A model generated the notes under the pieces. That model was not told the origin of the DNA. It searched no databases and worked only from the letters and a program-made list of their open reading frames with translations. Positions 5,386 through 63,593 of a DNA stretch of 64,000 nucleotides are shown here, piece by piece. Numbering within the stretch: the first letter of the stretch is position 1; the number at the start of each line of letters is the position of its first letter. The translations under genes and the position numbers were made by a program. The stretch comes from Macrotrachela quadricornifera (Eukaryota > Rotifera > Eurotatoria > Philodinida > Philodinidae). The stretch covers positions 1 through 64,000 of the forward strand of contig JAJEKB010020648.1 in the NCBI GenBank assembly GCA_022393335.1, read 5' to 3'.

Positions 5386-7798
5386 TATATCAAATAAAAT
5401 AATAAAAAGCGAGAAAATCTATAAAGAAAAAGTTTATAATAATAATAATTTTTAAACAAAATTTAAATGTATTAAGATCAATTGTAAGTAACGGATTTCT
5501 TAAAATAGTAAAATCAGTATTTCGCTTTTTTTTCTATATTGCAAAGATGAGCTTAGAAAATAAGTGCTTATAAACAAATATCTAACTATATGCGTATGTT
5601 GTGACCGATTAATACTTCAATACTCAAAGTGTAAGAAATTATTCATTTCTGAAAATCATCATTGTTTTCAACGAAATATTTGTTACGTTTAATACATATA
5701 GAAAATCCCGTACAATCGTTTTTGAATAAAGATTGAAAAGTTAAGTAGAATTAAAACTTTGAATCTCTAGCCTAAGCGTACCCATCAAGTAAGATAAAGA
5801 TCTTGAAGTTTTATGTAAATTATTAGGATTTTGATAAAGGAAATTTGCAATTGAAGTGTGACCTAGAACTTCTATTCTATCTCATGGAAAGTGTGACTTT
5901 ATGTTTTCTTCAGTATACTTACTATTTGCACATACTTGTGACATTACTCAAAAAGAAAAAAAAAGTTTGATTACAGTGTGTTGTGTAATTCCTTTTCGTT
6001 CTTTATGTTGAGTCATAAATTAAACTCGTTTAGCTGATTCATTCCACGTTGGTAAAAATTTAAATCATAATGAAGGCATTCTCAAGTAAAAAAAGAGAAT
6101 AAACAATGCAAAATTTATATGATACTTATGTAATGTATATTTCGCTATTTTTCAATGGTAAATTTTTTCAGCCTTAAAACTTTATGAGTACATACTGATA
6201 CATTCAATAGTATTTTTCGGCCATAATGAGGGATAAAGACGTTTTTCGTATACTCAGAATGTAATCCGCAATACTCTATGATTAGCGTTTCTATCGTTTG
6301 GAAGCGATCTATGGCCTTCCACTTCGGAACTAAGTATATCTAAATAATATTAAATATTTATTTTCTTTCATGAATAATTTTTTTTCTTATATGGAAAATC
6401 TTGAGGTTATTCTACAATTCAAATATTTTCGTCATCCTGCTATTCTACTTTGCAGTCATTTTTCCTTAAATGGTCAAAAAATGTGACCACTCAAGTAAAT
6501 CTCAAAAGGTCTTTGTTAGATGCGGCGACTGCTCGAGAGTCATTTCAGTCAAGTTTTTCCCGTTCTGTTAAAATGAGCACCCCTCGAAAAATCTAATATC
6601 CAGCTATTTGCGGTTTCGATTCCTCGATCTTGACTAATCGACCAGACGATTTTCTACGAGTGCTCAAACTTCAGTTGGCGTGAAAATCTTTTGAACAAAT
6701 TAAAGAGTTGCATCTTCTTTTCGCTCATTTAGCTTTCTTTCGAACGCTTCGATTCTATCAAAATAGCGAGTACTCGGCGAAAGAAACACATCTAAGCCCA
6801 CTATTCAAGCACTCGACTTTTTTTGTGCAACAGAAGCTTATGGAATTTCTCAAAGATCAGCTGTAAAGATGCTGTCAGGAAAATCATCAATACTTGGATA
6901 CGATCGGTGATGATCTCAAAGTCAAATCTACATTTCATAGCCTCGTAAATTTCAAGCTACATAAGAAAGAAATCTAATCAGATCTGTTGAAAATCTTTTA
7001 GATTCTTTACATTACTGTCTTAGATTTCGCTTCCATTTGAAATATCAATAGCTTGAAAGTCGATTAAAATTCGCTATCATCAATTATCAATCAATTCTTA
7101 TAATTATTGTATGGGCATCTTTTTTTTATTTCTCTTTCTTGATTTAGTTTCGCAATATTTTATTAATGTTAAATTATAAAATGTTGAATTGAAAAAAATA
7201 TTCTAGAAAATAATGATTGCTGTCTGACTAAATGAGAAAATAAGAAAGAATTTATATTCATGAAAAAAAAAAGAAATATCGCTAAGGACAGTTGATATAT
7301 TGATAAAATATGTTTCTATAGTCAGAAGATCAAGATGTTTAGATCAACTCGTCGATTCATGGTTCATAATCGTAAGTACATATGTTCGAAGTAACACTTT
7401 CCGATAGATCGAGGACATGGCGATGAGTTGTTTCATTTCGATATATATAAACCTATTGAAAAAATTCTAAGATTTTCAATCGATTTGAACGTTCGATGGA
7501 CATCGAAATATCCATCGACAGTTAGGTTGGGAAGTTCTTCCATCTGATAGTATTATTGTTAATTAATATGAATCAACATTCTTTTATCTATATAAAAAGA
7601 TTTTCATTTAGAAAAAGTGAGTATTGGTAAAAGTACTTAATTTTGCTAAAACAAACTAGTTTATTTACTGATGATTCAATATTAATATTAATTTCACAAT
7701 ATGACAAAAAAAGCTGAACACTGATAAATACACAATGATAAGCAAGTAGATCAGTTCTTCGAAGAAAGTCACATTTCGTACAGGAATTTTGCTAATAT
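5386..7798. other. 2.4-kb AT-rich intergenic region
   Basis: No open frame longer than a few dozen codons has recognisable coding character. A block at 6520-7000 is less AT-rich and has short in-frame stretches interrupted by stops, but no family was recognised. The 3' end of the receptor gene and the promoter of the phosphatase must lie within this region. No TATA-type element stands out. Confidence 0.45.
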
Positions 7799-10700
7799 CT
7801 AGATGAACTTATTAAGAAAACGTCGACAAATATTTGATAATAGTTCCGTAAATTCTTTTCTGAAGAATGATGATGGTATAACAAAGATTATAAAAACGGA
7901 TGCTGATGGAATGAATGAAAGAAAATAACCGATAAGATAAAACCAAAATAAATGAGATGATTTATTACAATCTAATATAATTGAAATAATTAAATGAGGT
8001 AATGTTAATATTATGATCATAATAGGACTAATTAGAAGATGTTTATATTTTTTTAATTTTAATCTAAAATGAATCCATAAACTAGAATTAGTTTGAATAG
8101 TAGCTCGTTGACGAGTAGTTGTTATGATGATGAATAATGCTGAGAATAGATTAATAAATAATGGAATAAAATAATGAAAAAATAACAAAGTTGAAGTATA
8201 AATTTGTAACCATGATGAATAAATAACAACACACCAACTTCGTTCTTCGATTTTATCTTCAAATACATGAAGGCCAAGTAATTGTGGAATAGAGAGACAG
8301 AAAATAATAATAAATAATAATACGATTATACATTTAGCAATTTGTTTACTTTTCTTCTTGTTAAAAGAAATTCCTTGAAATACAGTAATTGATCGTTCTA
8401 TTGCTACACAAGCATTAAGCCAATTGTCTAAGTATAAAAACATTTTTAGAAGAAGTTCAATACATCGACAATTCATAATAAGAATAAATTGCTGAACAAT
8501 TTCACCAAAATAATCTTGATATGAAAGAAAAAGAAGCCAGAATTTCAGTGTAAATAAAATGACAATCACTAATGAAATAATCGATGAAGCCAAAAGATAT
8601 GTTCCACAACCAATTATCTGTGTTTTTTTTCTCGAAAAAGTTATTATTGATAAAATACTATTGATGATACCTATTACGAATATTAACATTGTAATAATAG
8701 CACTCACTTTTACTCTAAAAGATTGCTTGGCTAAGATTATATTATGTTTAAATTCATAACCTAAGATTTCATCTAATGTTGCACCGAGACCTTTTGCATA
8801 AAATTGACATTGATTACCAAAAAAACAATTAGGACATATACAAATTCTTGTAGATGGACAAGTCGGATGATCTTGTAAACATTGTGCTCCATGTTTACAA
8901 TCATTATTCAATGTACATTGAAAATTATTATCATGATTAAATTCCAAACAATTAGCATGATGATCATTTGTACATAAACAAAGATAGTATTCATCAATAA
9001 AACAAGTCAAATCAAAGCGTCTTCGACAAAGATCGAAATAAAATTTTATTCGTTGATATTTTAACATTGTCAATACATTTGAATGAAATAATTGTTCAGT
9101 AGGATAACATTCTTGTTTAAAACTAATTGATGTTGAAATGTATGTCTTTGAAGATTGTTGAAGTACAGCAAGATAATACTTGTTACTAGCTTCAATAATT
9201 ACCATATGAAATGGTATTGCAATGTGAAAAGTAATGACATCTTGAAAAAGAGTTAATTTTCGGAGTATAATCGTTTTGATTGGTTCAGATTCATTGGAAA
9301 GGGTAAAGAAATAAGTTACGAGATACGATGGAATATAAATGGTATCTAGAGAAATATCAAGTCTAGATTTCAACTTTTCACAATTTCTTCCAAAATATCG
9401 ATCAGGACAAATACAAGTATAATCTTTTTGAGGATTAGTCACATCAGCTGGGACACATTTACCATTATTTTGACAAGCATTAATCGGACATGTTGATGTC
9501 AATAGACATTGAGAACCAAATTTGTCTAAAGGACATACACATATCGATTGATTATTTGATGATCCTATACAGATTGAATCGGATGAACATGTCTGACAAT
9601 TTATTGGTATATTGCATTGAATACCTGACCATTTAGGAGAACATCGACAGAAATATTTTTCTTTATTTAAGTATTTTACACATTCACCATTGACACAAGT
9701 AATGGAGCAATGAGATGAACGATGAATTGGATTATTTGATAGAATAAATGAAAATGCTAATCTATTGACAGGCAAAAAAAGAAAAGTAATGGGAACGTAC
9801 CAACTTCCAACATATATCATATTATTTTTGTCGAATGTATCGATACGTATACTGTAATTCTTGGAAATATCTTTTGGTCGTGTTGAAAATAATAAATATC
9901 GGTTGAATCTAATACTACAGCTTTGTTTTGATATATATACAAACTGATTATATGCATCAATCTTGTGTTCTTCATCATTATCATCGATTAACATAATAAC
10001 AATAGCATAAATAGTATGTCTATCAAATGAACTCAATCGTAATGTTAAACTAATTCGTTTATTTTGATATTGACATAAATGACCATAATAACTAGGTGGG
10101 CATATACATGTCTTATTATAATTATTGTTTCCGAGTAATGTATGAATAATGAGTCCACGATTGCAATACCATGGCCAGAAGTTATCCTTAATTTGAGATA
10201 CATTAATATTTACGGAAGGATGTCTCTCTATTGGCCAATAAATAGTTTCATTAAAGACATTTTTTTCTGAAGGAGGATGGTTGGATGAAGTATGAACGGA
10301 AAAATATTGAATTCTGTCATTTTTAGCTTCACTCAGTCCACAAAGAACTTCTTCAATTTCACTACGATTGCGCGTTAAATCCTTGTCACATCTAAATGAA
10401 CGATTATTGCAGAAATCTTCATCATCACCCTCAGGACAATCTCGATTATGATCACATAATTGAGATGATTTTATGCATTCATCAGTGTTTGAACAGCGAA
10501 AACGAAATTCACTTGCAGGATATTTCCATCGACATAGTTCTTGTTCATCTGCTGCTCCAAGACAATCAACTTCTGTATCATTAACTTGTTCATGAGATAA
10601 ACAAATCACTGTATAATTGACGGGAGATACACATGCATAAGTTCCTGAACAACATTTTGTTTGACTACAATTGTTTTCATCTCGTCCATCTACACATGAC

Positions 10701-12481
10701 CAATAGCCATCACAACGCGCATACATGTTGTCACACATCCAAGGCTCGCACTCAGATTCGTCATTCTGTAGGTTTTCGTAACTATCGTAAAAATTATATT
10801 CTTTCATACCATTGCAAAATTTGTAAAAAGGGATTTTCTCTCCACTTAAGTCACTTTGCACCATGCAAACGTCTGTTTCCACTAGAGGAGACCAACACTG
10901 ATTTGTGTTTAGACAGTGCACTCGGTATGAGTCATTAAGTAGACAGCTATTTTCATAGTCCTCATCGTCCTCCCAAAAACAATCTACATTCCCATCCATA
11001 ATGCGATGTACAGAAATGAACTTTGAAGAATTTTGACATTGATATAATGATAAATGATCACTATATTGTGTTTTATTATGAAAGATAACATGAGAAGTTA
11101 AACAGCGGCGAAAATATTCTTCAATGTTCTGAACCATCTCAAACCACGACTCTGCAAACGTATACAAGTACGTTAATACTGTATTATTCTGTAGACACGT
11201 GAGATTTTCATAAATCAATTGAGGTATGATAGAATCACATAACTGTTGATTATAGCAAATATAATCTGGTGTAAAAAACTGTTTCAAAGATCGATTCAAA
11301 AGATCATTTTTATAGATGAAACGAATATGACCAGAATGAACTGGAATAGTAGGAAATTGAAAGAGAGGATCACATTGTTGCAGAAAGTCGTAAGCTGAAT
11401 TATTCATCATCCATCTTTCACATAAACCTCTATTATTATCTTGCTCAGCAAGTATGTTAAGACAGACCATAGCAGTCCAGCATTCGTTTGTTAGATTACC
11501 TTTGGCTGTCATTGATTCTATCAGTAATACATGACGGGCATTGGGACATGTACCAAATTTCAGAACACATTGCCCATCTCCACATGAAAAACTGTCGGTA
11601 TTTGGTCTGCAAGAATGTTCTTCACAACGAAATGTCGGATCTTGAAAACAATGCTCAGTATATGAGGCACGTGATACTTCATCCGATCGATCGAGACAAT
11701 CAGCATCACCTTCACCTTCTTCCCAGAGATCGCTTGAAATACATAAACCATTGTGGCATCGATATTCATCTTCTTGACATTCATTTAATTCCATCTCGAA
11801 GCAAAATTCCTCATCGAGACCTTCATCATAACAATCAATATTTCCATTGCACACTTCGCGCCAATCAAGACACCAAAATTGACCATTACGATGGCATTTT
11901 AGAAAAACATAGCATGGCATCTGAACTATCATGTCAGTCGAATCGGAATATGGTTTTCTCCCAAGAAATTGAGCTTGAACAATTTGATTAAAGGACATTG
12001 ATTCACCAAACTCAAATGAATATTGACAGCGAACACCAAACCATGGCTTCGTACAATTGTAGACATGCTCATTTAATGAAAATTTCGGTTCATTCAGATA
12101 GAATTGATATCGTTCAGTCACATCAAGTGGAATTGACCACGAGAGAAGTTCTTGTGACGTAATATTGGTCAAGCGTAATTCTTCAAAACTCAAGTTTTGA
12201 GAAAGTGGATTGACAACATCTCCAAATGATTCATCGAAATTATTTGCTGGACGAAAACAATATGGAATGACTTCATCCGTAATATCTAATAATTCTTGAT
12301 AAGCGAATTTTTCACGATAAACATAATAATTTAAACAATCATATTGTAACGAATTGATTTTTATTGTTTGATCAGTGTTATAGAGATTCAATTGACAAGT
12401 AGTAATCGCACATTGAAATAAAACTATCAAAAAAATCTGAAATCTTATTTTACCTTTCCTAAATGAGATTGCATTCATCAT
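7799..12481 (-). CDS. Chimeric LDLR-A/EGF ectodomain 7TM receptor
   Basis: A single uninterrupted minus-strand exon encodes 1560 residues. A signal peptide (about residues 10-30, FLIVLFQCAITTCQ) precedes a ~1220-residue ectodomain. LDLR class A modules with acidic calcium-site motifs lie near residues 190-230, 235-270, 600 and 660-690 (CPEGDDEDFC). EGF-like modules lie near 790-800 (CPPSYYGHLC), 930-965, 965-1000 and 1005-1040 (CICPDRYFGRNC). There are many N-glycosylation sites. From about residue 1255 seven hydrophobic segments follow. TM3 is followed by LDNWLNACVAIERS in the position of the rhodopsin-family D/E-R-Y motif, and the tail after TM7 is short. This is a class A-like GPCR with a very large modular extracellular part. 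The ligand is unknown. Divergent receptors with this plan are, to my knowledge, expanded in bdelloids. The single-exon structure is unusual for a modular receptor and may point to a retrocopy or intron loss. Confidence 0.85.
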   Translation of the reverse strand: MMNAISFRKGKIRFQIFLIVLFQCAITTCQLNLYNTDQTIKINSLQYDCLNYYVYREKFAYQELLDITDEVIPYCFRPANNFDESFGDVVNPLSQNLSFEELRLTNITSQELLSWSIPLDVTERYQFYLNEPKFSLNEHVYNCTKPWFGVRCQYSFEFGESMSFNQIVQAQFLGRKPYSDSTDMIVQMPCYVFLKCHRNGQFWCLDWREVCNGNIDCYDEGLDEEFCFEMELNECQEDEYRCHNGLCISSDLWEEGEGDADCLDRSDEVSRASYTEHCFQDPTFRCEEHSCRPNTDSFSCGDGQCVLKFGTCPNARHVLLIESMTAKGNLTNECWTAMVCLNILAEQDNNRGLCERWMMNNSAYDFLQQCDPLFQFPTIPVHSGHIRFIYKNDLLNRSLKQFFTPDYICYNQQLCDSIIPQLIYENLTCLQNNTVLTYLYTFAESWFEMVQNIEEYFRRCLTSHVIFHNKTQYSDHLSLYQCQNSSKFISVHRIMDGNVDCFWEDDEDYENSCLLNDSYRVHCLNTNQCWSPLVETDVCMVQSDLSGEKIPFYKFCNGMKEYNFYDSYENLQNDESECEPWMCDNMYARCDGYWSCVDGRDENNCSQTKCCSGTYACVSPVNYTVICLSHEQVNDTEVDCLGAADEQELCRWKYPASEFRFRCSNTDECIKSSQLCDHNRDCPEGDDEDFCNNRSFRCDKDLTRNRSEIEEVLCGLSEAKNDRIQYFSVHTSSNHPPSEKNVFNETIYWPIERHPSVNINVSQIKDNFWPWYCNRGLIIHTLLGNNNYNKTCICPPSYYGHLCQYQNKRISLTLRLSSFDRHTIYAIVIMLIDDNDEEHKIDAYNQFVYISKQSCSIRFNRYLLFSTRPKDISKNYSIRIDTFDKNNMIYVGSWYVPITFLFLPVNRLAFSFILSNNPIHRSSHCSITCVNGECVKYLNKEKYFCRCSPKWSGIQCNIPINCQTCSSDSICIGSSNNQSICVCPLDKFGSQCLLTSTCPINACQNNGKCVPADVTNPQKDYTCICPDRYFGRNCEKLKSRLDISLDTIYIPSYLVTYFFTLSNESEPIKTIILRKLTLFQDVITFHIAIPFHMVIIEASNKYYLAVLQQSSKTYISTSISFKQECYPTEQLFHSNVLTMLKYQRIKFYFDLCRRRFDLTCFIDEYYLCLCTNDHHANCLEFNHDNNFQCTLNNDCKHGAQCLQDHPTCPSTRICICPNCFFGNQCQFYAKGLGATLDEILGYEFKHNIILAKQSFRVKVSAIITMLIFVIGIINSILSIITFSRKKTQIIGCGTYLLASSIISLVIVILFTLKFWLLFLSYQDYFGEIVQQFILIMNCRCIELLLKMFLYLDNWLNACVAIERSITVFQGISFNKKKSKQIAKCIIVLLFIIIFCLSIPQLLGLHVFEDKIEERSWCVVIYSSWLQIYTSTLLFFHYFIPLFINLFSALFIIITTTRQRATIQTNSSLWIHFRLKLKKYKHLLISPIMIIILTLPHLIISIILDCNKSSHLFWFYLIGYFLSFIPSASVFIIFVIPSSFFRKEFTELLSNICRRFLNKFI

Positions 12482-13005
12482 CGACCGTTGTTTTTTTTAA
12501 TTTTTATTCTCACTGATTTCAACAATTTTAGCTCTGAGAAAGTCAGAATAATATATTTTTATTGAGAGAAAAAGATTTTCTATGTGCAAAATAACTGTGA
12601 ATAATTATTATCATTGGTCGATTTCTATATTAACAGATAAAAAAAAACATTCAAACAATAATATATCCAGATCGATGATCAAACAACAACTAAACGTGTC
12701 AAAACTCTGCGGTGAATATCATGATAATATAGAGTTACACATATTATAGAAGTAAAAAAATCAACATCGATTATTATTAATCTTCATATTGACACTTCGT
12801 GCTGTATGTATAATTTGTAAAATAATATTTAAAAAAAAACATAAAATAATGTTCACAATATGTGAAAGTAATGGTTTCAGCTATAAAAACCACTTCTTCT
12901 AAATAATAATCAGTATATCAACATAGTGGTTTCGTTGAGAAGAAACTTTTTTTAATAGTCTGTTGTTTTTGTCATTGTTTGATCGAAATATCTCATCAAA
13001 TAGTT
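12482..13005. promoter_or_regulatory. Region upstream of the receptor and a divergent candidate gene
   Basis: This spacer lies upstream of the receptor (minus strand) and of the small plus-strand candidate. A CTATAAAAAC sequence at 12881-12890 is a good TATA-box candidate for the plus strand, about 115 bases before the ATG at 13006. No equivalent was clear for the receptor. Confidence 0.35.
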
Positions 13006-17500: not shown

Positions 17501-20047
17501 GAAGTTGTATTTTATGAGATTTCAAAGAACACCATTAGTGGAGACTAAATTAATAAAACTCATAAAAAATGCCTTTTCTCGTATGTTTTTCAACCAAATT
17601 GGTGAAATTGTCAAAAATCTCAGATGTCAAGGTATAATCATCGTCTAGTATGAACAAAATATAACAATGTGAAAAAATATTGTTCGCTTGGCTTTATGAC
17701 TTCTTTATTATTTACATCTATACCAACTGGATTATCATGAGTCGTGTAAGTATATAATTAGATAGTTATTATCACACGAAATATGTTTTTCACTTGCAAA
17801 TGATTGAATGTTTAATTGTAATTAATAGAAAACAATCAGTTCAAGATGCGTTAGATCTCGTTGAAAAAAAATAAAAATTAACGAGTTAATTTTAAACTTG
17901 AATTTTTGGGTTTTAACAAAATCTTGACACATTTCTTTCTTGAAAATCTTGTCGAATTTGATAAATGGATCTCGATGAGTAGAACAAAAGTTGCCATGAA
18001 CTTAGAATCCTCAAATGGTTCCTTTCCACAGATATTCAGAAGCTAAAGACTAAAAAATGCCTTAAAGTCCTTTCCTTTCCATATTTCTCTTTGTAATATA
18101 TCATTCCTGAGGACACTATCAAAACAGCGCAATTTTTTCTCTTAGTTGATTTTGTGCAATCAACTAAGAATTCGTAAGAATAATATTTTTAAGAAAAATC
18201 AAAGCACTTATAAAACAGATTCAATCCTATAGACAATACAGTGTAGGAGAACACAGTGAAATATTTCAATTTTTTGTTCAAAGATCTAATTCTGAGAAAA
18301 AAGACAAAATTTTTCTCAAATTTTCTATATATAAAACGTAGGTTTTCAGTTCTCAAAATGTGCTCATTCAATCATGTTGTCATTAGAATCGATTTTGAAA
18401 GACTCATGACTTATGTATTTATATAAATTCTTGTAACATGTGAAGTCAACCGCAGCTTACCGTACATAATAAACCTTATAAAGTATCCTTATTCAAAAAA
18501 TTCAATACTTCAGTAGTAATTTTAGTCTTGTTTAAAATTCCTTAAAATATGAAGAAAGACACGGGTAAATCAGATTTAACCAATTTTTTTGTGCTCTGCG
18601 TTTGAGATGTTTAAAAACAATTTTACTGATTTATGTAGATTTATTCCTAACCTATTTGATGGTATATATCAAGTGTTTTATGTAAATAAAAAGAATTCTT
18701 TACTTGATACTTCTTTCAAAATAGTAACACCTTTACTTGTATGATTTTATAGAAACCAGCATAATATTTATATTTGTTGATCATTTTGAATATATTGTGA
18801 AATACTAATCTTTCATTTTAAATTTATTTCTGAATTATTTTGTATATAGTATCAAAATGAGGAAACTATTAAATTATTCATATTGAAAGAGAGTCGTTTT
18901 TTTTTCATTCTAAATATTGATTAAGATATATAAAGATTTTAGAGAAAACTCTAGGGTTACGCCCGCACCCTCAAGAGTACTTGAATTCAAGTTTCAAGTC
19001 TTAAATATATGTGAAGATTAATCCAGTCGTTAATCTTTGTCCTGATACCACGCAGATATTGAATATTATGTATATTGGTTTTCTCTTACGGTGCACAACA
19101 GAATTGAATAATATAAATACCATTGGATAGAGAAAATCTTCGTCTGTGAACATACATGTATCTCGTTATCTAGAAAGAGACATTAGAAAAATCTTGATTT
19201 CGAACTCAATTGATCACTTGAAAATCCCAATTTTGCGTACTCACAATACCCTAATCGTAGCGCTACAAAATCATATCAGATCAACTTTCTTTTTGATAGA
19301 ATTTCTTTTTCTGGATTCCAGATGTTAAAAGGCACTTTTCCAGTCTAACTATGTTCTTAAAGCCTCTTCAGTTTTTCGTAAACATTTAAAGCAAATATTT
19401 TTACATATTTTTGTAGTAGATACTTTACTCTTTCTAACAATAAAAAAATACCAAGTTGCCATAACGAAAATTTGAGATATTATACTGGAAGTAAAATTAG
19501 TGCAAAGACTTTGCGTCATCCTTGATTAGTAGTATCATTTTTTATTTTATTTTAGTAGTACATTATTCCTTTACTATAGAAGTTGTTTGAAAACTTCTTT
19601 AATGACCATACATTGTAAGAGAAATATTTTTCAGTATTCTTTAATAAAATCCTTTCGATAAGATTTTTCGTTAAATTATAACGTGTTTTATTGTGTGCAA
19701 CAATAACTATATTCTCATTCTCTACTATAGAGCTTGCAACAGCACATATTTTGTCGTTATTTTAAAAAATTGTATATTTAATAGTACCATCGCCAAATAT
19801 TGATTATAGATTGATAATTACTTATCTATTTTTTTGTTAAAACAAAACCCTATTGAGACACTATTTGAAACATTATACTAAAAGATTATGAGTACATGAG
19901 ATATTTTCAATTGAGTATCAAATAACTATACGATGTGTTAATCATTATAAGACCCTTAATAATGATAAATGTCCTTTCACTATATATATTTATAACTTCG
20001 ATATTTTCAGTGTACTTTTGTGAATTTATTGAAAGAAGAAAAGAACT
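14571..20047. other. 5.5-kb AT-rich region without a supported gene
   Basis: The longest frames (16093-16323, 16599-16898, 18189-18371, 19146-19328) lack recognisable domains, splice support or coding-like composition. A less AT-rich block near 16680-16860 has a Ser/Glu-rich reading on the minus strand broken by a stop and may be a decayed exon. Just before the M23 gene, TATATATATTTATAAC at about 19981-19996 is a plausible TATA box for that gene. Confidence 0.45.
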
Positions 20048-20512
20048 ATGGTTACCATACGCAGTTCAACTGGTTTATTTGCTATCATTGTTTTGATTCA
20101 TTGTATAATTGATCAAACCAATGGTGTGTCACCAGTTCCTGGTAAAAAAGTAACAACAGCATATGGTGTAAAAGGTAATTGGGCACTTGGTTATCATACA
20201 GGAGCTGATTATGCATGTCCTATTGGAACAAAAGTAGTAGCAACAAAAGAAGGAGTTGTTAAAGCTGGAAATTGGGGTGCAGCTTTAGGTACACATATTA
20301 TAATTGAATCAAAAGATTCAAATGGTAAATTGGTTCAACATTTATATGCACATTTAAGTAAAAAATTGGTAAATGTTGGTGATAAAGTTAAAACTGGACA
20401 AGAAATAGCTAAAAGTGGAAATACAGGACAAGTAACTGGTCCTCATCTTCATTATGCAGAACGAGTTTCACCATTTGCTTATGCTAATCATCGAAAACCA
20501 CTATTTAGTTAA
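20048..20512 (+). CDS. Secreted M23-family (LytM-type) metallopeptidase
   Basis: This intronless 154-residue protein has a signal peptide (about residues 1-26, ending DQTNG) and a single peptidase M23 domain. The zinc ligands are His50 and Asp54 in GYHTGADYACP, and His135 in GPHLHYAE. His102 in LYAHLSK is the second active-site histidine. The surrounding glycines (GNTGQVTGPH, GDKVKTGQEIAKSG) are the conserved turns of the fold. M23 enzymes cut peptide cross-links in bacterial peptidoglycan, which animals lack. The closest overall look is to short bacterial, especially actinobacterial, secreted forms, so horizontal acquisition is likely. Eukaryotic integration is shown by an upstream TATA-like sequence, local AT-rich codon use and an AATAAA at about 20577. 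A TTTTCAG before the 5' leader could be the acceptor of a leader intron. The likely role is extracellular digestion of, or defence against, bacteria. Confidence 0.88.
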   Translation: MVTIRSSTGLFAIIVLIHCIIDQTNGVSPVPGKKVTTAYGVKGNWALGYHTGADYACPIGTKVVATKEGVVKAGNWGAALGTHIIIESKDSNGKLVQHLYAHLSKKLVNVGDKVKTGQEIAKSGNTGQVTGPHLHYAERVSPFAYANHRKPLFS

Positions 20513-55228: not shown

Positions 55229-55845
55229 CTTAGATCACAATCGAAGATATCCAAGAACAAACTGATTTGAGTTATGGGACTGTTCAATGAATAATCACTG
55301 ATCATTTAAAGCTTCGGTAGATATAGGAGATCCTTAATCTACTGTTGTTCGAGGAAGTCGCCTTGCATCAAAAACCTTGTTTTCGATCTTTTTCAAATCG
55401 ATTGAGCCTATGTTAATCCATCGCATCGAACGTGATCAGTTTGTTGATCATCATTATTACATCAACCAATGTTTACGACTTCTGATCGATGAGATTAAAC
55501 GTCAAAGATCTTTGTATGGGACGCGTGGTATCAAAATTCATTATGACAATGGTAGACTACATGTGCATGAAGATGTATCCGATTATCTTGAATCTGAAGG
55601 CTTTACAATAATACCACATCCATCTAATTCTCCAGATTTGTCACCTTGTAACTTCTGGATATTCGACTTGATCAAAGATAATCTGACCACTCAAGATGAT
55701 TCAGACTCATTACATGATACTGTGGTCGATTTCATGAACTCCTTAAATTCAGACGAGTATAAAAAAGACCTTCGAAAAATGTATCGAAAGAATGAAGCTG
55801 TATGTAGATAATCATGGTGATTACTTTGAACATTTAATGAAATAA
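55229..55845 (+). pseudogene. Mariner transposase, catalytic fragment
   Basis: ITIEDIQEQTDLSYGTVQ (second helix-turn-helix) is followed by stops. After a deletion the sequence continues STVVRGSRLASKTLFSIFFK, then IHYDNGRLHVHEDVSDYLE, and HPSNSPDLSPCNFWIFDLIK. The second catalytic Asp (HYDN) and the third (SPDL) are present, 34 residues apart or close to it. The region with the first catalytic Asp is deleted. A frameshift precedes the final DNHGDYFEHLMK. The protein cannot function. Confidence 0.82.
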
Positions 55846-57202: not shown

Positions 57203-57940
57203 TCAACCCGTTATATCATGGACCATTTTGAGCCAATCATCAAACATCTTTGGATTTTTAGCACTGACAAAATAGATCTTTCTCACTCCTCTAAGACCAA
57301 TCTTCTCTACTTCCGATCGAATCTGTTTTTTCACTTGTTCTTGTTCATCTGTATCCACTTTGTCGAATTTGTTGAATATAATGTCATATTGTAGACCGAT
57401 TTCATCCAACAGTTTCATCATACTTGAGTTTTCTTTTACTGTAGCTTGGATGAGAATCAGACGGCGGGTGAGACCTTTGAAGAAGGAGATATATTCCATA
57501 CTCAAATACGATACTTCATCATTTCGACCGGGAACATCCCAGAGTATGAAGTTAGTTCCAGGATAAGATTTGATTACAGTAGTTGTTTCACCAACACCTG
57601 TTTCGGCGACTTTTTGGCCAAGGAGAACATTGAGCATGGTGGATTTACCAGTGGATGTCAAACCAAATAGCGCAATATTGTTGCCTTCCATTTGACGCGC
57701 CTCAGTTTTCTTTGCTAAATCGACGAGAACTTTCTTTGCTTGTTGATCTTGTTCAGCAAGCTCCTCGAAGGTTTCAATCTTTTTTCGTTTAAGCTGCTCG
57801 TTGAGTTCATCGAAGCGTTGCAGTAATTGCTCGTGTTGTTGGCGATATCGAGCCAATTCTTCACGTAATTGAGCCATTTCGGCAGATTCTCTCGGTTCTA
57901 TATGAAGAAGTATTAATAGACGGTCGGTCGGAATGATCAT
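57203..57940 (-). CDS. IRG-like P-loop GTPase, paralogue 1
   Basis: A minus-strand ORF carries the full set of G motifs. They are FGLTSTGKSTMLNVLLGQ (G1), ETGVGETTT (G2 Thr), LWDVPGRND (G3 DxxG), NKFDKVD (G4) and VSAKNP (G5). An N-terminal coiled coil precedes them (QLREELARYRQQHEQLLQRF, LNEQLKRKKIETFEELAEQ). It ends shortly after G5 (FDDWLKMVHDITG). Unlike its paralogues, no good short first exon was found. An acceptor-like TTCATATAG at ~57902 has the family's phase, but the upstream sequence has stops in all suitable frames. The gene may use the ATG at 57940, or it may have lost its first exon. The role is inferred from the family: nucleotide-dependent assembly on membranes. Confidence 0.75.
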   Translation of the reverse strand: MIIPTDRLLILLHIEPRESAEMAQLREELARYRQQHEQLLQRFDELNEQLKRKKIETFEELAEQDQQAKKVLVDLAKKTEARQMEGNNIALFGLTSTGKSTMLNVLLGQKVAETGVGETTTVIKSYPGTNFILWDVPGRNDEVSYLSMEYISFFKGLTRRLILIQATVKENSSMMKLLDEIGLQYDIIFNKFDKVDTDEQEQVKKQIRSEVEKIGLRGVRKIYFVSAKNPKMFDDWLKMVHDITG

Positions 57941-58020
57941 ATTCAAAGTATCAGCTCTGTCTGATGTTTCTTTACCGAATTACAGGGTCATCATCTTAAT
58001 GACCTTCCCACAGATACACA
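57930..58020. repeat. Inverted duplicate of GTPase 5' flank, arm 1
   Basis: The minus-strand text GAAGGTCATTAAGATGATGA through AAAGAAACATCAGACAGAGC is repeated in opposite orientation at 58853-58925 with few differences. The two arms enclose ~830 bp that holds an unrelated coding remnant. This shows a local inversion or duplication of the GTPase upstream region. Confidence 0.7.
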
Positions 58021-58299
58021 AAAAACTGTTTTTTTGAGATCGGACCGTAAAGTTGTTATATAACAAGTGTCACCATTCGAACGGGTTATGCCAAAAAATA
58101 GAGCGACTTTTTCATCTCTCCATATCGATCTTTAGGTAGGAAAAAATGTCTCACAAAGTTTTTTTTCAAAAACTTTGGATGAAAAGAAGATGAACACCTA
58201 AGGCTACCACTATTGGAAAGAGCGATTTTAGATGGATTGGATGAGACTAGAGAAGGTACCTAATAACGATAGTAAATTTTTGACTCGACTTGGTTGAGA

Positions 58300-58850
58300 T
58301 CTTTCGTAACTAAAATACGCTTCATTCGCACTAATTTTTCGTTTCCAGAATCATGGACACTTCTTTCAAATATCAGAGTGGTCTACGATTCATCTATCAC
58401 GGTATCCGACTTGGAATCACGTCTTTATAACGACACTAAGTTAAATTTTGACTATAATAACGATATTGTAGAGCGCATCGAACTCTATCAAAAACTAGCG
58501 GTTCATAAAGAATGAATCAGTTATTTTTTGCATCTAGTAATGGGACATACGAAAAATTTCAATAGATCTTGACACAGGACGCAAACTAATTTTTATTTTA
58601 GGAGGCTACTTGATTGTGTTTGTTTTTCACCACTTTATTTCATCCCTCAAGAAAAGTCATTTTTGTGCTGGGACCCTTACCATCAGGTTTTCGCAAAAAT
58701 TTTGCTCGTTCATTCCATGTGCAATCTTCACAATTTGATCGAACAATATGTGCTGATCACGAATATCATATTTTTTTCAATATTAATCCACTAATGAAGA
58801 CGCTCTATGGCACTTTTGGAGGAGAGATAAATCAGCTTTTTGTGTAACCA
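58300..58850 (+). pseudogene. Two coding-like segments of an unrecognised protein
   Basis: The first segment (to 58515) reads VVYDSSITVSDLESRLYNDT then KLNFDYNNDIVERIELYQKL and ends VHKE. After ~100 bases with an acceptor-like TTTATTTTAG, the second (58614-58847) reads FVLGPLPSGFRKNFARSFHV, then ADHEYHIFFNINPLMKTLYG and GTFGGEINQLFV, then a stop. Both look like conserved soluble protein, and the second reaches a natural-looking C-terminus. They cannot be joined in frame through the splice sites I see, and an in-frame TGA precedes the second. It is probably a decayed gene. I do not recognise the family. Confidence 0.45.
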
Positions 58851-58852
58851 TG

Positions 58853-58925
58853 AGAAGGTCATTAGGATAATGATCCTATAATTCGATAAAGAAACATCAG
58901 ACAGAGCTGATACTTTGGATTTTAT
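58853..58925. repeat. Inverted duplicate of GTPase 5' flank, arm 2
   Basis: This plus-strand copy of the segment upstream of paralogue 1 includes AAAGAAACATCAGACAGAGC followed by TGATACTTTG. It stops before any GTPase coding sequence. Confidence 0.7.
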
Positions 58926-60185
58926 ACTACTACAACATGGTCTTCATTCTGGCGTCATCAAATCCAAAAATTAAAAATATTTCTCCTGCCATCATGTTTA
59001 GAATTCTGACGGACTGTTTTTTAAAAAGATATCGTTAGACAAACTCAAGATATAAGTTAATCCGTTAGTCATTAGAAATAAATCTTTTGCTTCTCGATCG
59101 ATACTATGAATTTCAATCGGTTTATTATACAAGAATTTATTTACGTACCTTTTTTTGCAGAGAAATGGTTCAATAAAGCTTCAGTAACTTTGTTAACAAT
59201 GGGTATGAATGGTAAGTATGCCATCTCAGAAGGTAAAGATTCTAATCAATATTCAGCTCAATAACTTGTGACTTTTTATACCCGGTCGTCGACGAATAAA
59301 TAGTGCTGCTCGGTATGTTGGAATATACCGAGGAATTTTACCTATTCCCATTGCCCATATTTTATTTTTTCTGATGTAATCTCATAGTATGTTCTTTCTC
59401 TCTTCTTTGCATATTGTTTGAGCAATTTTTGCATGTGTCATAGACTGTTATCGAGGAGGCTGGCTTTTTCTCTTTTCCGTTCTGTGTCGGAAATAATAGC
59501 CGCATGTGATTTGGTAAGGACTAGAAAAGACCCACCTCATATCACTTAAAATCGGAATATTCCGAAAGAATAGTAAATCGAGACCTTTCGTCATGAAAGT
59601 GATCAACAAGCAAAATAGGAAAATATCTCTATATGTAGACTTTTCGATCTCTTCTCCTCAAACTGTGCAAGCTTTTAAATCTTTTTATAATTCGAAAAAA
59701 ATATTCATTCACATCAAGAAACTCTATCGTCTAACACATAAGTGTGTCGATTTCGATAACGAATGAGAATATTTCAAAGTCAGCCAATATTATTTGAAAT
59801 TACTTTTATTGAGTTTCGATTAATATCATGTAAGTCACATACAACATGTATCCTGCAATGACTCATTGTATTTGTCGACGGGTATACCACAAGTGTAGTA
59901 CTGAGTACAGAACGAAAGAAAGAAAAAACCAACTTTGTTCTCGATGGTAGTCTAGCATACACATACAAATTACTCAAGGAATGCGTAAGAGGGAGAGAAT
60001 AGAGCGGGATAATTTCACCACACAATAATAAAATATGAAGTTGGAAGAAAGGAATAGTTGTTTCTTAGTCATTGGCCGATTCCAATATAGCTGTGATTCA
60101 TATATATATATATATTTCTCATAGATTTGTGTTGCAAATATACAATCTACAAAGCACTAGATTCACTGTAAGTTAGGACTGCAAC
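58926..60185. other. Spacer inside the GTPase cluster
   Basis: No gene is supported. A (TA)n run lies near 60102-60116, about 70 bases before the ATG of paralogue 2, and may act as its TATA element. The open frame 59780-60025 has no domain character. Confidence 0.4.
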
Positions 60186-61226
60186 ATGACAAGTACAATC
60201 AAAAGAAAGTCACTGCGTGCCCGTGCAGTTCAAATGCTGATGAATACAATTAACTCTTTTCAAAGTAAGTGATGGGAGATTTTTAGATTTGAAATTATCT
60301 GAGCAACACGTCTTCGTTTAGGTCGTTATCATCTCTATCAAGAAAATACTGCATTGCGTAACGAATTATCCTATCATCGTCAGCAAGTTGTAGAAAGACC
60401 GAAAGTAGGTGAGCAGCAGTTGACATCCAGTCCTAAATCACATCATAAGTCAGGATTTCCGAATTCGGTATCTACAAATCATCCACCATCTCCAAAAGAT
60501 ATAAATTCACACACAGTGAAACCAAAAATTGAAGAAGATATTGATGACGAAGAAGCATTACGAGCCGAAGTGGAACATTATCGCGAAAGAAACGCTGAAC
60601 TACTCCAACGTTATGCCAAGCTCAATGAAGAACTGAAGAGAAAGAAGATCGATTCATTCGAATCTCTCGCCGAATATGATAAGGATACAATGAAAGTTCT
60701 CATCGAATTAGCTCGACTCACTGAACCCATTCCGTTAGAAGGCATCAATATTGGTCTATTTGGTCTGACATCCACTGGTAAATCCACCATGCTCAACGCT
60801 CTTCTTGGTCAAAAACTCGCCGAAACAGGTGTTGGTGAAACGACCACTGAAATCAAACCCTATCCTGGAGCTACCTTTACTCTCTGGGATATTCCCGGTC
60901 GAAATGACGAAGTATCTTACTTCAGTATGGAATATATCTCTTTTTTCAAAGGTCTCACTCAACGACTGATTCTCATTCAAGCTACAGTGAAAGAAAACTC
61001 AAGCATGATGAAATTGTTGGATGAAATTGGATTACATTATGACATCGTGTTCAACAAGTTTGACAAAGTCGACGAAGAGGAACGAGCAGAAGTACAAAAG
61101 CAGATTCGATTGGAAGTAGAGAAGATCGGTCTTCAAGGAGCGAGAAAAATCTATTTTGTCAGTGCTAAAAATCCAAAGATGTTTGCTGATTGGTTGATGA
61201 TGACCGAGGATCTGGTCAATCCTTGA
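60186..61226 (+). CDS. IRG-like P-loop GTPase, paralogue 2
   Basis: Exon 1 is 60186-60264 and exon 2 is 60322-61226. The intron is 57 nt (A/GTAAGT, TTTAG/GT) at phase 1, and the product is 327 residues. Exon 1 encodes a basic leader (MTSTIKRKSLRARAVQMLMN). Residues ~40-100 are a Ser/Pro-rich linker. Residues ~105-150 form a coiled coil (RAEVEHYRERNAELLQRYAK). The G domain follows with GLTSTGKST at 174-182, TGVGETTTE, WDIPG at 215-219, NKFD at 271-274 and SAK at 307-309. The order TG(V)-x-ETT followed by a W-D-x-P-G switch 2 motif resembles immunity-related GTPases. A catalytic Gln in switch 2 is absent (PGRNDE), as is common in self-assembling GTPases. AATAAA signals lie at ~61289-61300. It is likely to bind GTP and oligomerise on membranes; this is inferred. 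Confidence 0.85.
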
Positions 61227-61330
61227 ATGAAAAGAAACTCTTCAATCAAAACATTTCGTTTTTTTGTGAATGTTTTTTTGTGAAAAAAAGAACAATAAAT
61301 AAAATATGACTGATGTCCGTTATCTTTATC

Positions 61331-61372
61331 AATCTGAATCTGAATCCGAATCCGAATCCGAATTTGCATCTT
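61331..61372. repeat. Hexamer microsatellite (CYGAAT)n
   Basis: AATCTGAATCTGAATCCGAATCCGAA-type units, about six copies, sit between the convergent 3' ends of GTPase paralogues 2 and 3. Confidence 0.8.
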
Positions 61373-61383
61373 CCATGGTATGA

Positions 61384-62242
61384 TTATCGTCTAAATAAAA
61401 AGATAAATATATCTGATAAAACCATTATTTGCAGATGGGACTTACAATCTTCATATTTTGAGGTTAAATATTTGACCATTTCCACCCAACTAGGAAACAT
61501 CTTCGGGTATTGAGCACTAAGAAAAAACACTTGTCTCATTCCTGTTAGGCCCGAAGATGCAATTTCTCGCTGGATTTGACGTTGAAATTGAGATCGTTCA
61601 TCTTCATCAACATCATCGAATTTATTCACAATAATATCATAACCCAATCCAAGATCGTCCAACAGACGCATAAATTGCAAGTTTTCTTTGATTGTGTATT
61701 GAATGAGAACAAGACGCCGAGTCAATCCCTTGATGAATGAAATGTATTCTTCATTCGAATAATTCAACTCATCATTACGACCAGGTGCATCCCAAAGAGT
61801 GTATCCTGTGCCTTGATATTGCGTCATTTCTGTCGTTGTTTCACCAACACCTGTAGCAGCAGTCTTTCTTCCCAGAAGACTATTGACCATGGTCGATTTG
61901 CCTGTGGAGGTTAATCCGAATATGCCAATATGTATGCCATGCATTCGAATTGCTTGCGTTCTACGCGCCAGTCTAGCTAGTGCTTTTTCACGTCGTTTTT
62001 CTTCTCGTTTCTCTTGTTTCCTTATCGATCGTTCTAAATTTCGATGTTGCTGATCAACTTCATCGCGCATTCGCTCGACTTCAGTACGCAACGATGCTGT
62101 TATCGTAGTTTGTTGACGACCTACAAAAGCAATTCATGTCACGGATAAGCAAATTCGATCACTTACGAGGAGTATCATCGAGTGTCTTCAACACGTTTCC
62201 AACGACTGTTGCTGCAGCAGCTCCTAGTAACCAGAATGCCAT
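61384..62242 (-). CDS. IRG-like P-loop GTPase, paralogue 3, with hydrophobic N-terminus
   Basis: Exon 1 (62242-62167) and exon 2 (62120-61384) are separated by a 46-nt intron at phase 1, giving 270 residues. Exon 1 encodes MAFWLLGAAAATVVGNVLKT, a short Ala/Gly-rich hydrophobic helix that could insert in or tether to a membrane. No other paralogue has this. A very basic coiled coil follows (IRKQEKREEKRREKALARLA). The G motifs are GLTSTGKST at 93-101, TGVGETTTE, LWDAPGRND with DxPG at 135-138, NKFD at 190-193, and SAQ in place of SAK. The Ser/Pro-rich linker of paralogues 2 and 4 is missing. The C-terminal extension (LQIMVLSDIFIFLFRR) is hydrophobic. The two hydrophobic ends make this the most likely membrane-resident member. 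Confidence 0.82.
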
Positions 62243-62579
62243 GGATGAATCGAAGTGTGTAGATTGAATCTGTTCGTCAATGTGAAATGATTGAGATTAA
62301 TAAATAGTCGTTGTAAAAAGCCTTTCTTATGAAATTTCCATAGATTTTTTCCCACTTCATTCACCGATAGTATCGTGGAAATAACCAACATGGATATGGT
62401 AAATGACTCATGAGATTTTTACCCAACAAGAACGAAAGAATGCGATATATATCACGTTCTTTCATTCTGTATCTCAATTAGCTCGAAGATTAAAGATGCA
62501 CAACTATCATCAATCTTGTTTATTGTAAAAAAAATGTGTTCTAGTTTACAAAGAAAATGAAATGCACTCAACAGTTTAT
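62243..62579. other. Spacer between paralogues 3 and 4
   Basis: About 340 bases hold the promoter of paralogue 3 and the 3' end of paralogue 4, both on the minus strand. No TATA box or repeat is obvious. Confidence 0.4.
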
Positions 62580-63593
62580 TTAATGTTGAAAATTTTCCAT
62601 GTAATTGACCATAATTTGCCAGTCAGGGAATTTTGCAGGAACTTTAGCACTGACAAAGAATACTCGATCAATCCCTTTTAAACCAAGTAATTTGATTTCA
62701 TTGTTAATCTGTTGTTGGATTTGTGTTCGTTCATCTTCATCGACTTTATCGAATTTGTTGAACACAATTGTATAATTTAAACCAAGGGCATCCAAGAATT
62801 TGATCATACTTGAGTTTTCTTTCACGGTAGCTTGAATGAGAATGAGACGTTGTGTGAGACCTTTGAAAAAGGAGATATATTCCATTGACAGATAGTTCAA
62901 TTCGTCGTTTTTTCCCGGAACATCCCAGAGTGTGAATTTAGTGCTATTGTAGGATTTGATTTCGGTTGTTGTTTCTCCGACACCTGTTTCGGCCACTTGT
63001 TGATCAAGAAGAGCGTTGAGTAGGGTGGATTTACCAGTAGATGTCAGACCAAAGAAACCAATGTTGTTGCCTTCCATGAGCATGGGTGGAGTCAGACGAG
63101 CCAATTCGATCAGAGTTTCCATTGCTTCTTTATCATGGTGGATAAGATCTTCGAATGAATCAATTTTTTTTCTCTTCAGTTGCTCATGGAGCTTTTCAAA
63201 ACGTTTGATCAGTTCAGCATTCTTTTCGCGATATCGAGATATTTCCGCTCGTAGTGCAGCATCGTCGTCTGTCTCTTGTGACGTTGATGACGCATTTGGC
63301 TGATGCTGCTCATGTTCTTGAGGTGAAGGTCGTTCGGTAGGTCGAGCGTTCGTCGGCTGCTGCCGCTGTTCGTGAGATGCCGGATTATTTGCAGATTGAT
63401 AACCATGAGGAGTTGATTGTCCTCTCGGTTGGAAGCTTCTTTCAGATGGATCAACAAAACCTAAACGAAACAATCAATAATATCTTCGAAGTTATGAAAA
63501 GAAGAATGGCCTACCCCGAAATACATTGATCGAATTCAATAATAGTTCAATGAACCGAATAGGAAAGGTTATAGTAATAGTCATGGCATCCAT
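62580..63593 (-). CDS. IRG-like P-loop GTPase, paralogue 4
   Basis: Exon 1 (63593-63515) and exon 2 (63460-62580) are separated by a 54-nt intron at phase 1, giving 319 residues. Exon 1 encodes MDAMTITITFPIRFIELLLN, an amphipathic leader. A long polar linker rich in Gln, Pro and Ser covers residues ~35-92 (HEQRQQPTNARPTERPSPQE). A coiled coil follows (RAEISRYREKNAELIKRFEK). The G motifs are GLTSTGKST at 164-172, TGVGETTTE, WDVPG at 205-209, NKFD at 261-264, and VSAK. It is closest in plan to paralogue 2, sharing the linker, the coiled coil and KRKKIDSFE. The orientation and exon structure point to tandem duplication with inversion. No stop or frameshift interrupts it. An alternative start is the Met four residues in. 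Confidence 0.85.

What the first reader, a model, noticed from the sequence alone, without database searches (positions are those of the whole stretch)
57203..63593. Cluster of four IRG-like GTPases with a shared, compact gene design
Four intact paralogous G-domain genes lie within 6.4 kb in mixed orientation. All share GLTSTGKST, a TGVGETT block, WDxPGRND/KND, NKFD and a terminal SAK/SAQ (seen). Three share a 76-79 nt first exon and a phase-1 intron. They differ only in the N-terminal module: basic leader, amphipathic leader, or hydrophobic helix. The motif style resembles immunity-related GTPases (family knowledge), but the proteins are shorter and lack the IRG helical C-terminus. Rapid variation of the leader while the G domain is conserved suggests paralogues sent to different membranes. 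This would be a compact self-assembling GTPase system, perhaps cell-autonomous defence (inference).
Basis: partly seen in the sequence, partly recalled or inferred. Interest (0 to 1): 0.78.

Follow-up and report, generated by a model that had tools for sequence, protein, structure and literature searches.

The report
Rotifer-only membrane-helix GTPase family cluster
Four neighbouring genes belong to a large family of small GTP-binding proteins, so far found only in bdelloid rotifers, in which some neighbouring genes have copied the enzyme half from each other while keeping different front halves; the job of the proteins is not known.

Summary
Gene A's first exon lies across a 1.25-kb intron swollen by an inverted-repeat element.

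The host is a bdelloid rotifer by its homologues. Its genome has 39 matching stretches on 19 contigs, 13 with internal stops. Every relative with an organism name is bdelloid.

Structurally the G domain ties between IRG and EngB; PDB sequence profiles favour IRG. But IIGP only grazes its cut-off and is outscored by MMR_HSR1, the IRG C-terminal helical domain is missing, and R/K replaces the hydrophobic Q61-site residue. Stronger IRG homologues lie elsewhere in the genome.

'Rapid leader variation' is mostly the reverse: leader types recur across bdelloid genera, while G domains are homogenised by gene conversion with a sharp boundary (A'/B' dS: 0.04 in G, 1.6 in coil).

Best reading: bdelloid-specific, probably membrane-anchored, coiled-coil GTPases under birth-and-death evolution. 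Defence is plausible but untested.

The parts
59149..59224 (-). gene A exon 1 (76 nt), class I hydrophobic leader MAYLPFIPIVNKVTEALLNHFSAKK
   Evidence: junction crossed by P0026, 87% identity, no gap
57898..59148 (-). gene A intron 1, phase 1, 1251 nt, holding the inverted-repeat element
57203..57897 (-). gene A exon 2: coiled-coil-like helices, pre-G helix and G domain (256 aa in all)
57936..58925 (.). 990-bp element with 97-nt inverted arms (57936-58032, 58829-58925; 86% complementary) inside gene A's intron
59225..60185 (.). 961-bp head-to-head spacer between the start codons of A and B; 945 bp in the homoeologous cluster
60186..60264 (+). gene B exon 1 (79 nt), class II basic leader
   Evidence: P0002 and P0011 cross the junction
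60265..60321 (+). gene B intron, 57 nt, phase 1
60322..61226 (+). gene B exon 2: linker, coiled-coil-like helices, G domain (327 aa in all)
   Evidence: AlphaFold2 model, mean pLDDT 82
62167..62242 (-). gene C exon 1 (76 nt), hydrophobic leader MAFWLLGAAAATVVGNVLKTLDDTP
62121..62166 (-). gene C intron 1, 46 nt, phase 1
61446..62120 (-). gene C exon 2: shortened helix and G domain
61391..61445 (-). gene C probable intron 2, 55 nt
   Evidence: GTAAGT..TTTAG; inferred from sequence only
61329..61390 (-). gene C probable exon 3, acidic SDSDSDSD tail (270 aa in all)
   Evidence: inferred from sequence only
63515..63593 (-). gene D exon 1 (79 nt), class II leader MDAMTITITFPIRFIELLLNSINVFR
   Evidence: P0043 aligns from residue 1; second-ranked in the scan
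63461..63514 (-). gene D intron, 54 nt, phase 1
62580..63460 (-). gene D exon 2: linker, coiled-coil-like helices, G domain (319 aa in all)

Best explanation
A cluster of four members of a large GTPase family found so far only in bdelloid rotifers. Anatomy shown by sequence and model: a leader of about 25 residues in its own exon, a variable linker, a helical coiled-coil-like segment, and a C-terminal G domain with nothing after it (except C's probable short acidic tail). Family history shown: clusters in several places of the genome, many broken copies, and gene conversion that copies the G domain, but not the leader and coil, between genes of different leader classes.

Inferred mechanism: the leader puts the protein on a membrane, the coil drives oligomerisation, and GTP-dependent G-G contacts, kept compatible by homogenisation, join class I and class II proteins into mixed assemblies. 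The most likely use, inferred only from the evolutionary style and the IRG-like G domain, is recognition or remodelling of membranes in cell-autonomous defence.
Against: No expression, localisation or phenotype data. The leader of the P0035 model is below pLDDT 50 and B's model has no leader. B's leader is no more amphipathic than shuffles (603 of 1000 reach it), and only 9 of the 18 leaders that I picked are reached by at most 50 of 1000. Gene conversion may be a passive result of proximity in inverted orientation and need not mean hetero-assembly. Window A/B has the same step in identity, but its longest run is not significant (2886 of 10,000). dN/dS shows no positive selection in the leaders. 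68 of the 188 hits were not listed, so a distant non-bdelloid relative could be among them.
Confidence: 0.5

Rival explanations
1. Same anatomy, but the work is constitutive membrane traffic, organelle contact or repair of membranes after drying, not defence.
For: Leaders and coil suit any membrane GTPase; one well-supported clade (100/99) holds an own-genome copy together with Rotaria and Adineta proteins, so some lineages are old and kept; nothing ties the genes to infection.
Against: 13 of 39 matching stretches carry stops, and both homoeologous copies A' and B' are cut short, which is unusual for core traffic genes.
Confidence: 0.3
2. True immunity-related GTPases (IRG/IIGP) that lost the C-terminal helical domain.
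For: Best PDB profile matches are Irgb10 (E 1.1e-9, aligned from its N-terminal helices to G3) and Tgtp2 (1.8e-9); IIGP scores 23.5-25.7 bits around its cut-off of 24; 59 of 76 members match IIGP at E 0.01 or better, the best at 1.4e-11; one relative, P0130, is named IRG-type G domain-containing protein in UniRef.
Against: MMR_HSR1 outscores IIGP in all four and has the better best E-value over the 76 (3.5e-18); P0130 itself shows no IIGP match at E 0.001. The same genome holds better IIGP matches (up to 78 bits; the C4649 pieces span profile positions 24-308), and a 72-aa piece of one scores 70.3 bits. R or K sits at the Q61 site in 115 of the 116 proteins with the motif. EngB ties structurally and is Foldseek's first match.
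Confidence: 0.1
3. EngB/Der-type ribosome-assembly GTPases sent to mitochondria by the basic leader.
For: Best NCBIfam match for two of four (A, B) is YsxC/EngB, up to 45 bits, and Der is best for C; EngB is among the top folds; B's leader has charge +5.
Against: 45 bits is far below the curated cut-off of 124; the leaders of B' (+1), D (0) and C (0) are not mitochondrial in style; many paralogues with broken copies.
Confidence: 0.07

Closest known systems
Immunity-related GTPases (IRG/p47, IIGP; Irga6, Irgb6/Tgtp2, Irgb10)
   Same: First in the PDB profile search and top by VIA-align over about 155 G-domain residues, tied with EngB; the aligned segments share an ETT switch I and a WD-x-PG G3.
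   Different: No C-terminal helical domain; R/K in nearly all listed homologues where IRGs have a hydrophobic residue after DxPG; NKFD and SAK motifs; leader exon plus coil; better IIGP matches exist separately in the same genome.
EngB/YsxC ribosome-assembly GTPases
   Same: Compact G domain, tied structural score, first in Foldseek, TIGR03598 at 32.5-45 bits.
   Different: Far under the curated cut-off of 124; extra leader and coil; multigene family with turnover.
Mitofusins and EHD-type dynamin relatives
   Different: No stalk or membrane segment after the G domain; in the four window proteins the Dynamin_N match covers mainly the P-loop region.

Membership tests
IRG/IIGP | PF05049 as best family, clearly above cut-off | tested here: not met
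   A, C and D pass the cut-off of 24 by at most 1.7 bits, B (23.5) does not; MMR_HSR1 scores 33.6-40.1 in the same four, and for D the SRPRB and Arf profiles also pass their cut-offs. Other members do better: 59 of 76 match at E 0.01 or better, best 1.4e-11, but MMR_HSR1 reaches 3.5e-18. A 72-aa piece of another locus of this genome scores 70.3 bits.
IRG/IIGP | C-terminal helical domain after the G domain (feature from passages of PMC1297648) | tested here: not met
   110 of 119 listed homologues with a P-loop have 140-175 residues from P-loop to C-terminus; 3 are shorter, 6 longer. The models end with the last G-domain helix. The two longest of the six, P0001 and P0004, have a second G domain.
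[quoted passage not shown]
   R 106, K 9, N 1 of 116 matching D-x-[PA]-G-x-[NH]; 4 of 120 do not match that pattern. The own-genome copies C4807b and C4769b have Q.
IRG/IIGP | N-terminal helical domain | tested here: inconclusive
   Helices precede the G domain in both models and the Irgb10 profile match starts in its N-terminal helices, but the structural alignments span the G domain (98-258; 137-300).
IRG/IIGP | Ras-like G domain of IRG type | tested here: inconclusive
IRG/IIGP | Interferon-inducible resistance function | not testable with these tools
   No expression or infection data.
EngB/YsxC | TIGR03598 above curated cut-off | tested here: not met
   32.5-45 bits against 124.45.
AIG1/GIMAP | PF04548 above cut-off | tested here: not met
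   In the rows shown only C lists it (12.3 bits, cut-off 27); 3 of 76 members at E 0.01 or better. The table for A was cut at 25 of 33 families.
GBP | PF02263 above cut-off | tested here: not met
   In the rows shown only C lists it (14.2 bits, cut-off 21.1; A's table cut at 25 of 33); not among the 25 of 43 families shown.
Septin | PF00735 above cut-off | tested here: not met
   In the rows shown only D lists it (10.9 bits, cut-off 26.2; A's table cut at 25 of 33); 3 of 76 members at E 0.01 or better.

The most novel reading that the evidence does not exclude
Class I and class II proteins from head-to-head gene pairs form obligate mixed assemblies, and gene conversion keeps the two G-domain faces matched while the membrane-targeting halves stay different: a two-component, concertedly evolving GTPase system private to bdelloids, possibly their counterpart of an IRG/GBP coat.
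Probability: 0.2. Interest if true: 0.7.

Novelty: new variant of a known kind. Interest (0 to 1): 0.52.

Why it matters
Bdelloids are treated as long-term asexuals that meet many pathogens (recalled, not tested here), and how their innate immunity diversifies without ordinary sex is an open question. A large private GTPase family in which one half of a gene is overwritten by its neighbour while the other half is held distinct gives a directly testable case of gene conversion shaping a multigene family. It also separates this family from the better IRG homologues that the same genome carries.

Tried and rejected
Prokaryotic or viral origin: the scans of genome contigs and viral contigs with the family alignment found 16 and 14 pattern matches, none confirmed by tblastn. 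The patterns were strict, so distant relatives could be missed.

Positive selection in leaders: NG86 on the two homoeologous pairs gave dN/dS 0.53 (A/A') and 0.33 (B/B') over 25 and 26 codons. The B/B' linker is near neutral (dN 0.54, dS 0.61). Both partners A' and B' are cut short, so the values may be inflated.

Pure purifying selection as the cause of the conserved G domain: rejected for A'/B', because synonymous sites are also near identical there.

Automatic classing of homologues by a helix pattern left 20 of 106 unclassed and misplaced a few; I dropped it for module identities (102 proteins; P0130-P0138 left out by an id filter, others for lack of a full N-module or G domain).

Leader scan in the own genome: 27 loci, with a score that favoured 73-82 nt exons. 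I count as plausible the 76-82 nt exons of nine loci (A, B, C, D, C3481a, C3481b, C4341b, C4475a, C4807a); those of D and C4475a were not top-ranked alone, the C4341b and C4475a donors are weak, and the other 18 loci gave none, or only weak or misplaced candidates.

Conserved promoter between the head-to-head pairs: four short matches at E 0.003 or better, two on the same strand and two on opposite strands, in AT-rich DNA without low-complexity filter; not pursued.

Literature: (search listings). I saw no paper on this family in those listings. PMC1297648 and PMC12220480 were seen as passages only. The second lists an Adineta vaga '50S ribosome-binding GTPase' flagged HGT with a cyanobacterial best hit; I did not test whether it belongs here.

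Fusions: P0130 and P0126 carry a ligand-gated channel and a DNL zinc-finger match beside the G domain; I take them for read-through gene models, untested.

Foldseek and VIA lists: septins and guanylate-binding proteins do not appear in the rows shown, which excludes nothing.

Copies of the inverted-repeat element in the genome: three requests, none answered.
Full report
What is there. The stretch 57203-63593 holds four intact GTPase genes, A (minus), B (plus), C (minus) and D (minus). The proteins are 256, 327, 270 (probable) and 319 residues long. Gene A's 76-nt exon 1 lies at 59224-59149, followed by a 1251-nt phase-1 intron which is long because it holds a 990-bp element with 97-nt inverted arms. 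This splice is supported by P0026, a continuous 248-aa reading frame on a 933-nt contig that aligns with A from residue 9 through the junction without a gap at 87% identity. P0002 and P0011 cross B's junction and P0043 crosses D's. Gene C probably has a second small intron and an acidic tail; that part rests on sequence alone.

Whose genome. The window is the first 64 kb of a contig of a 450-Mb genome. Every homologue that bears an organism name is from Rotaria, Adineta or Didymodactylos (120 of 188 hits listed, many without a name). Didymodactylos is a bdelloid in the NCBI taxonomy; that Rotaria and Adineta are bdelloids is recalled. An own-genome member on contig C4643 is 90% identical to a Rotaria sordida protein.

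How large the family is. A search of the genome with gene B gave 39 matching stretches on 19 contigs, of which 13 have stops inside. Some stretches are pieces of one gene, and one of the stops is probably part of a splice site. The tool calls such counts lower bounds. Several copies come in near-identical pairs, for example on C4341 and C4475. C3481 carries a homoeologous copy of the window's cluster with A' (minus), B' (plus) and a broken C' in the same order and orientation; no D' was found there. A' lacks its last residues, and B' is interrupted near the end of the G domain by an insertion of about 2 kb with long inverted arms.

Who else has it. A second query, made of four own-genome G domains joined so as to move the length window of the search, gave 27 proteins at E 4e-21 or better, bdelloid where named, and then a gap to Der-like proteins at 1.8e-3 (7997 candidates scored). 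Scans of bacterial, archaeal and viral contigs gave no confirmed relative. Within these searches the family is confined to bdelloids; the 68 unlisted hits were not seen.

Is it IRG? The Pfam IIGP profile scores 23.5-25.7 bits in the four proteins, around its cut-off of 24, while the general MMR_HSR1 scores 33.6-40.1. Against this, 59 of 76 family members match IIGP at E 0.01 or better, the best at 1.4e-11. The residue at the Ras Q61 site is R or K in 115 of 116 listed proteins with the motif, though two own-genome copies, C4807b and C4769b, have Q; IRGs have a large hydrophobic residue there (PMC1297648, passages). The own genome holds 26 IIGP matches; the best reach 78 bits and the pieces at C4649 span profile positions 24-308; three of the 26 overlap loci of the present family, at 26.6-31.2 bits, and none is one of the four window genes. 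A 72-residue piece of the C4649 locus scores 70.3 bits. So the family works with an IRG/EngB-like G domain but is not filed as IRG. Septin, GBP and AIG1 profiles do not fit. In NCBIfam only the general small_GTP domain model passes its cut-off among the rows shown, in D (48.2 against 42.5).

What really happens to the two halves. Between the homoeologous clusters, A/A' and B/B' are similar along the compared coil and G domain (nucleotide identity in 48-nt steps 67-90%). Between the neighbours A' and B' identity is 54-65% in the coil and jumps to 94-100% in the G domain. A and B in the window show the same step, 56-62% to 79-92%. For A'/B' the synonymous divergence is 0.043 in the G domain and 1.6 in the coil, and the longest run of matching variable sites is reached in none of 10,000 shuffles. 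For A/B the G-domain dS is 0.54 and the coil is saturated, but the run test is not significant (2886 of 10,000), as an old event would leave it. At protein level, of 39 pairs with G domains at least 90% identical, 13 have N-modules under 60% identical; they fall into five groups, among them Adineta ricciae P0018/P0087 (G 99%, N-module 48%) and Rotaria P0044/P0013 (97%, 44%). For these protein pairs I had no DNA, so conversion is shown by synonymous sites only for A'/B'. G domains are thus copied across leader classes, with the boundary close to the first strand of the G domain.

Leaders. Two leader styles recur across genera: hydrophobic ones like A (Rotaria P0035, P0036, P0044; Adineta P0087, P0108, P0111) and ones ending in a LLNTIN-like motif like B and D (P0002 unnamed, Adineta P0018, Rotaria P0043). 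A/A' and B/B' leaders are 54-56% identical over 26-27 residues. dN/dS is 0.53 and 0.33. This does not support rapid or positively selected change. Of 18 leaders that I picked, 9 have a helical moment reached by at most 50 of 1000 shuffles; B's is reached by 603.

How it probably works. Shown: leader exon, helical segment, G domain, multigene turnover, gene conversion. Inferred: the leader binds a membrane, the coil oligomerises, and G domains of class I and class II proteins meet. Inferred with less weight: defence. The head-to-head spacing of A and B (961 and 945 bp) fits a co-expressed pair but does not show one.

In print. The nine literature searches showed no paper on this family in their listings. 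One Adineta vaga transcriptome paper lists a '50S ribosome-binding GTPase' with a cyanobacterial best hit (PMC12220480, passages); its relation to this family was not tested.

Noticed in passing
57936-58925: A 990-bp element with 97-nt inverted arms (86% complementary) sits in gene A's intron; its copy number in the genome could not be searched (tool busy).
   Followed up: partly
L031 about 7205-9218 (C3481:105205-107218): The homoeologous gene B' is interrupted by an insertion of about 2 kb with long inverted arms (seen by eye); the rest of the gene's end follows it.
   Followed up: partly
G000:C4649:914998-915866 and C4653:1241685-1242553: Better IIGP-type GTPase homologues in the same genome (up to 77.7 bits at C4649), separate from the window's family; the C4653 copy carries stops.
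   Followed up: partly
20033-20512: Open frame with an N-terminal hydrophobic stretch and a Peptidase_M23 domain (E 1.2e-24), a class mostly known from bacteria (recalled); a candidate transferred antibacterial gene.
   Followed up: no
55338-55811: Open frame that recalls a mariner-type transposase by eye; no Pfam match at E 1e-4.
   Followed up: partly
7799-12496: 1565-aa open frame with LDL-receptor and EGF domain matches and a rhodopsin-type 7TM end.
   Followed up: no
L042 after about 6308 (C4639 from about 1124308): A family member (L027) runs into a stretch of N, so the 3211-aa 'open frame' reported there is an artefact.
   Followed up: yes
P0007 and P0014: Two homologues with identical N-modules (66 of 66) but different tails (23 of 39): perhaps a converted and an unconverted copy.
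   Followed up: no
own-genome C4807:319535-320191 and C4769:678798-679457: A divergent subgroup with GGTSRGKST or GWTSRGKST and Q after DxPG, where the rest of the family has R or K; its catalysis may differ.
   Followed up: no
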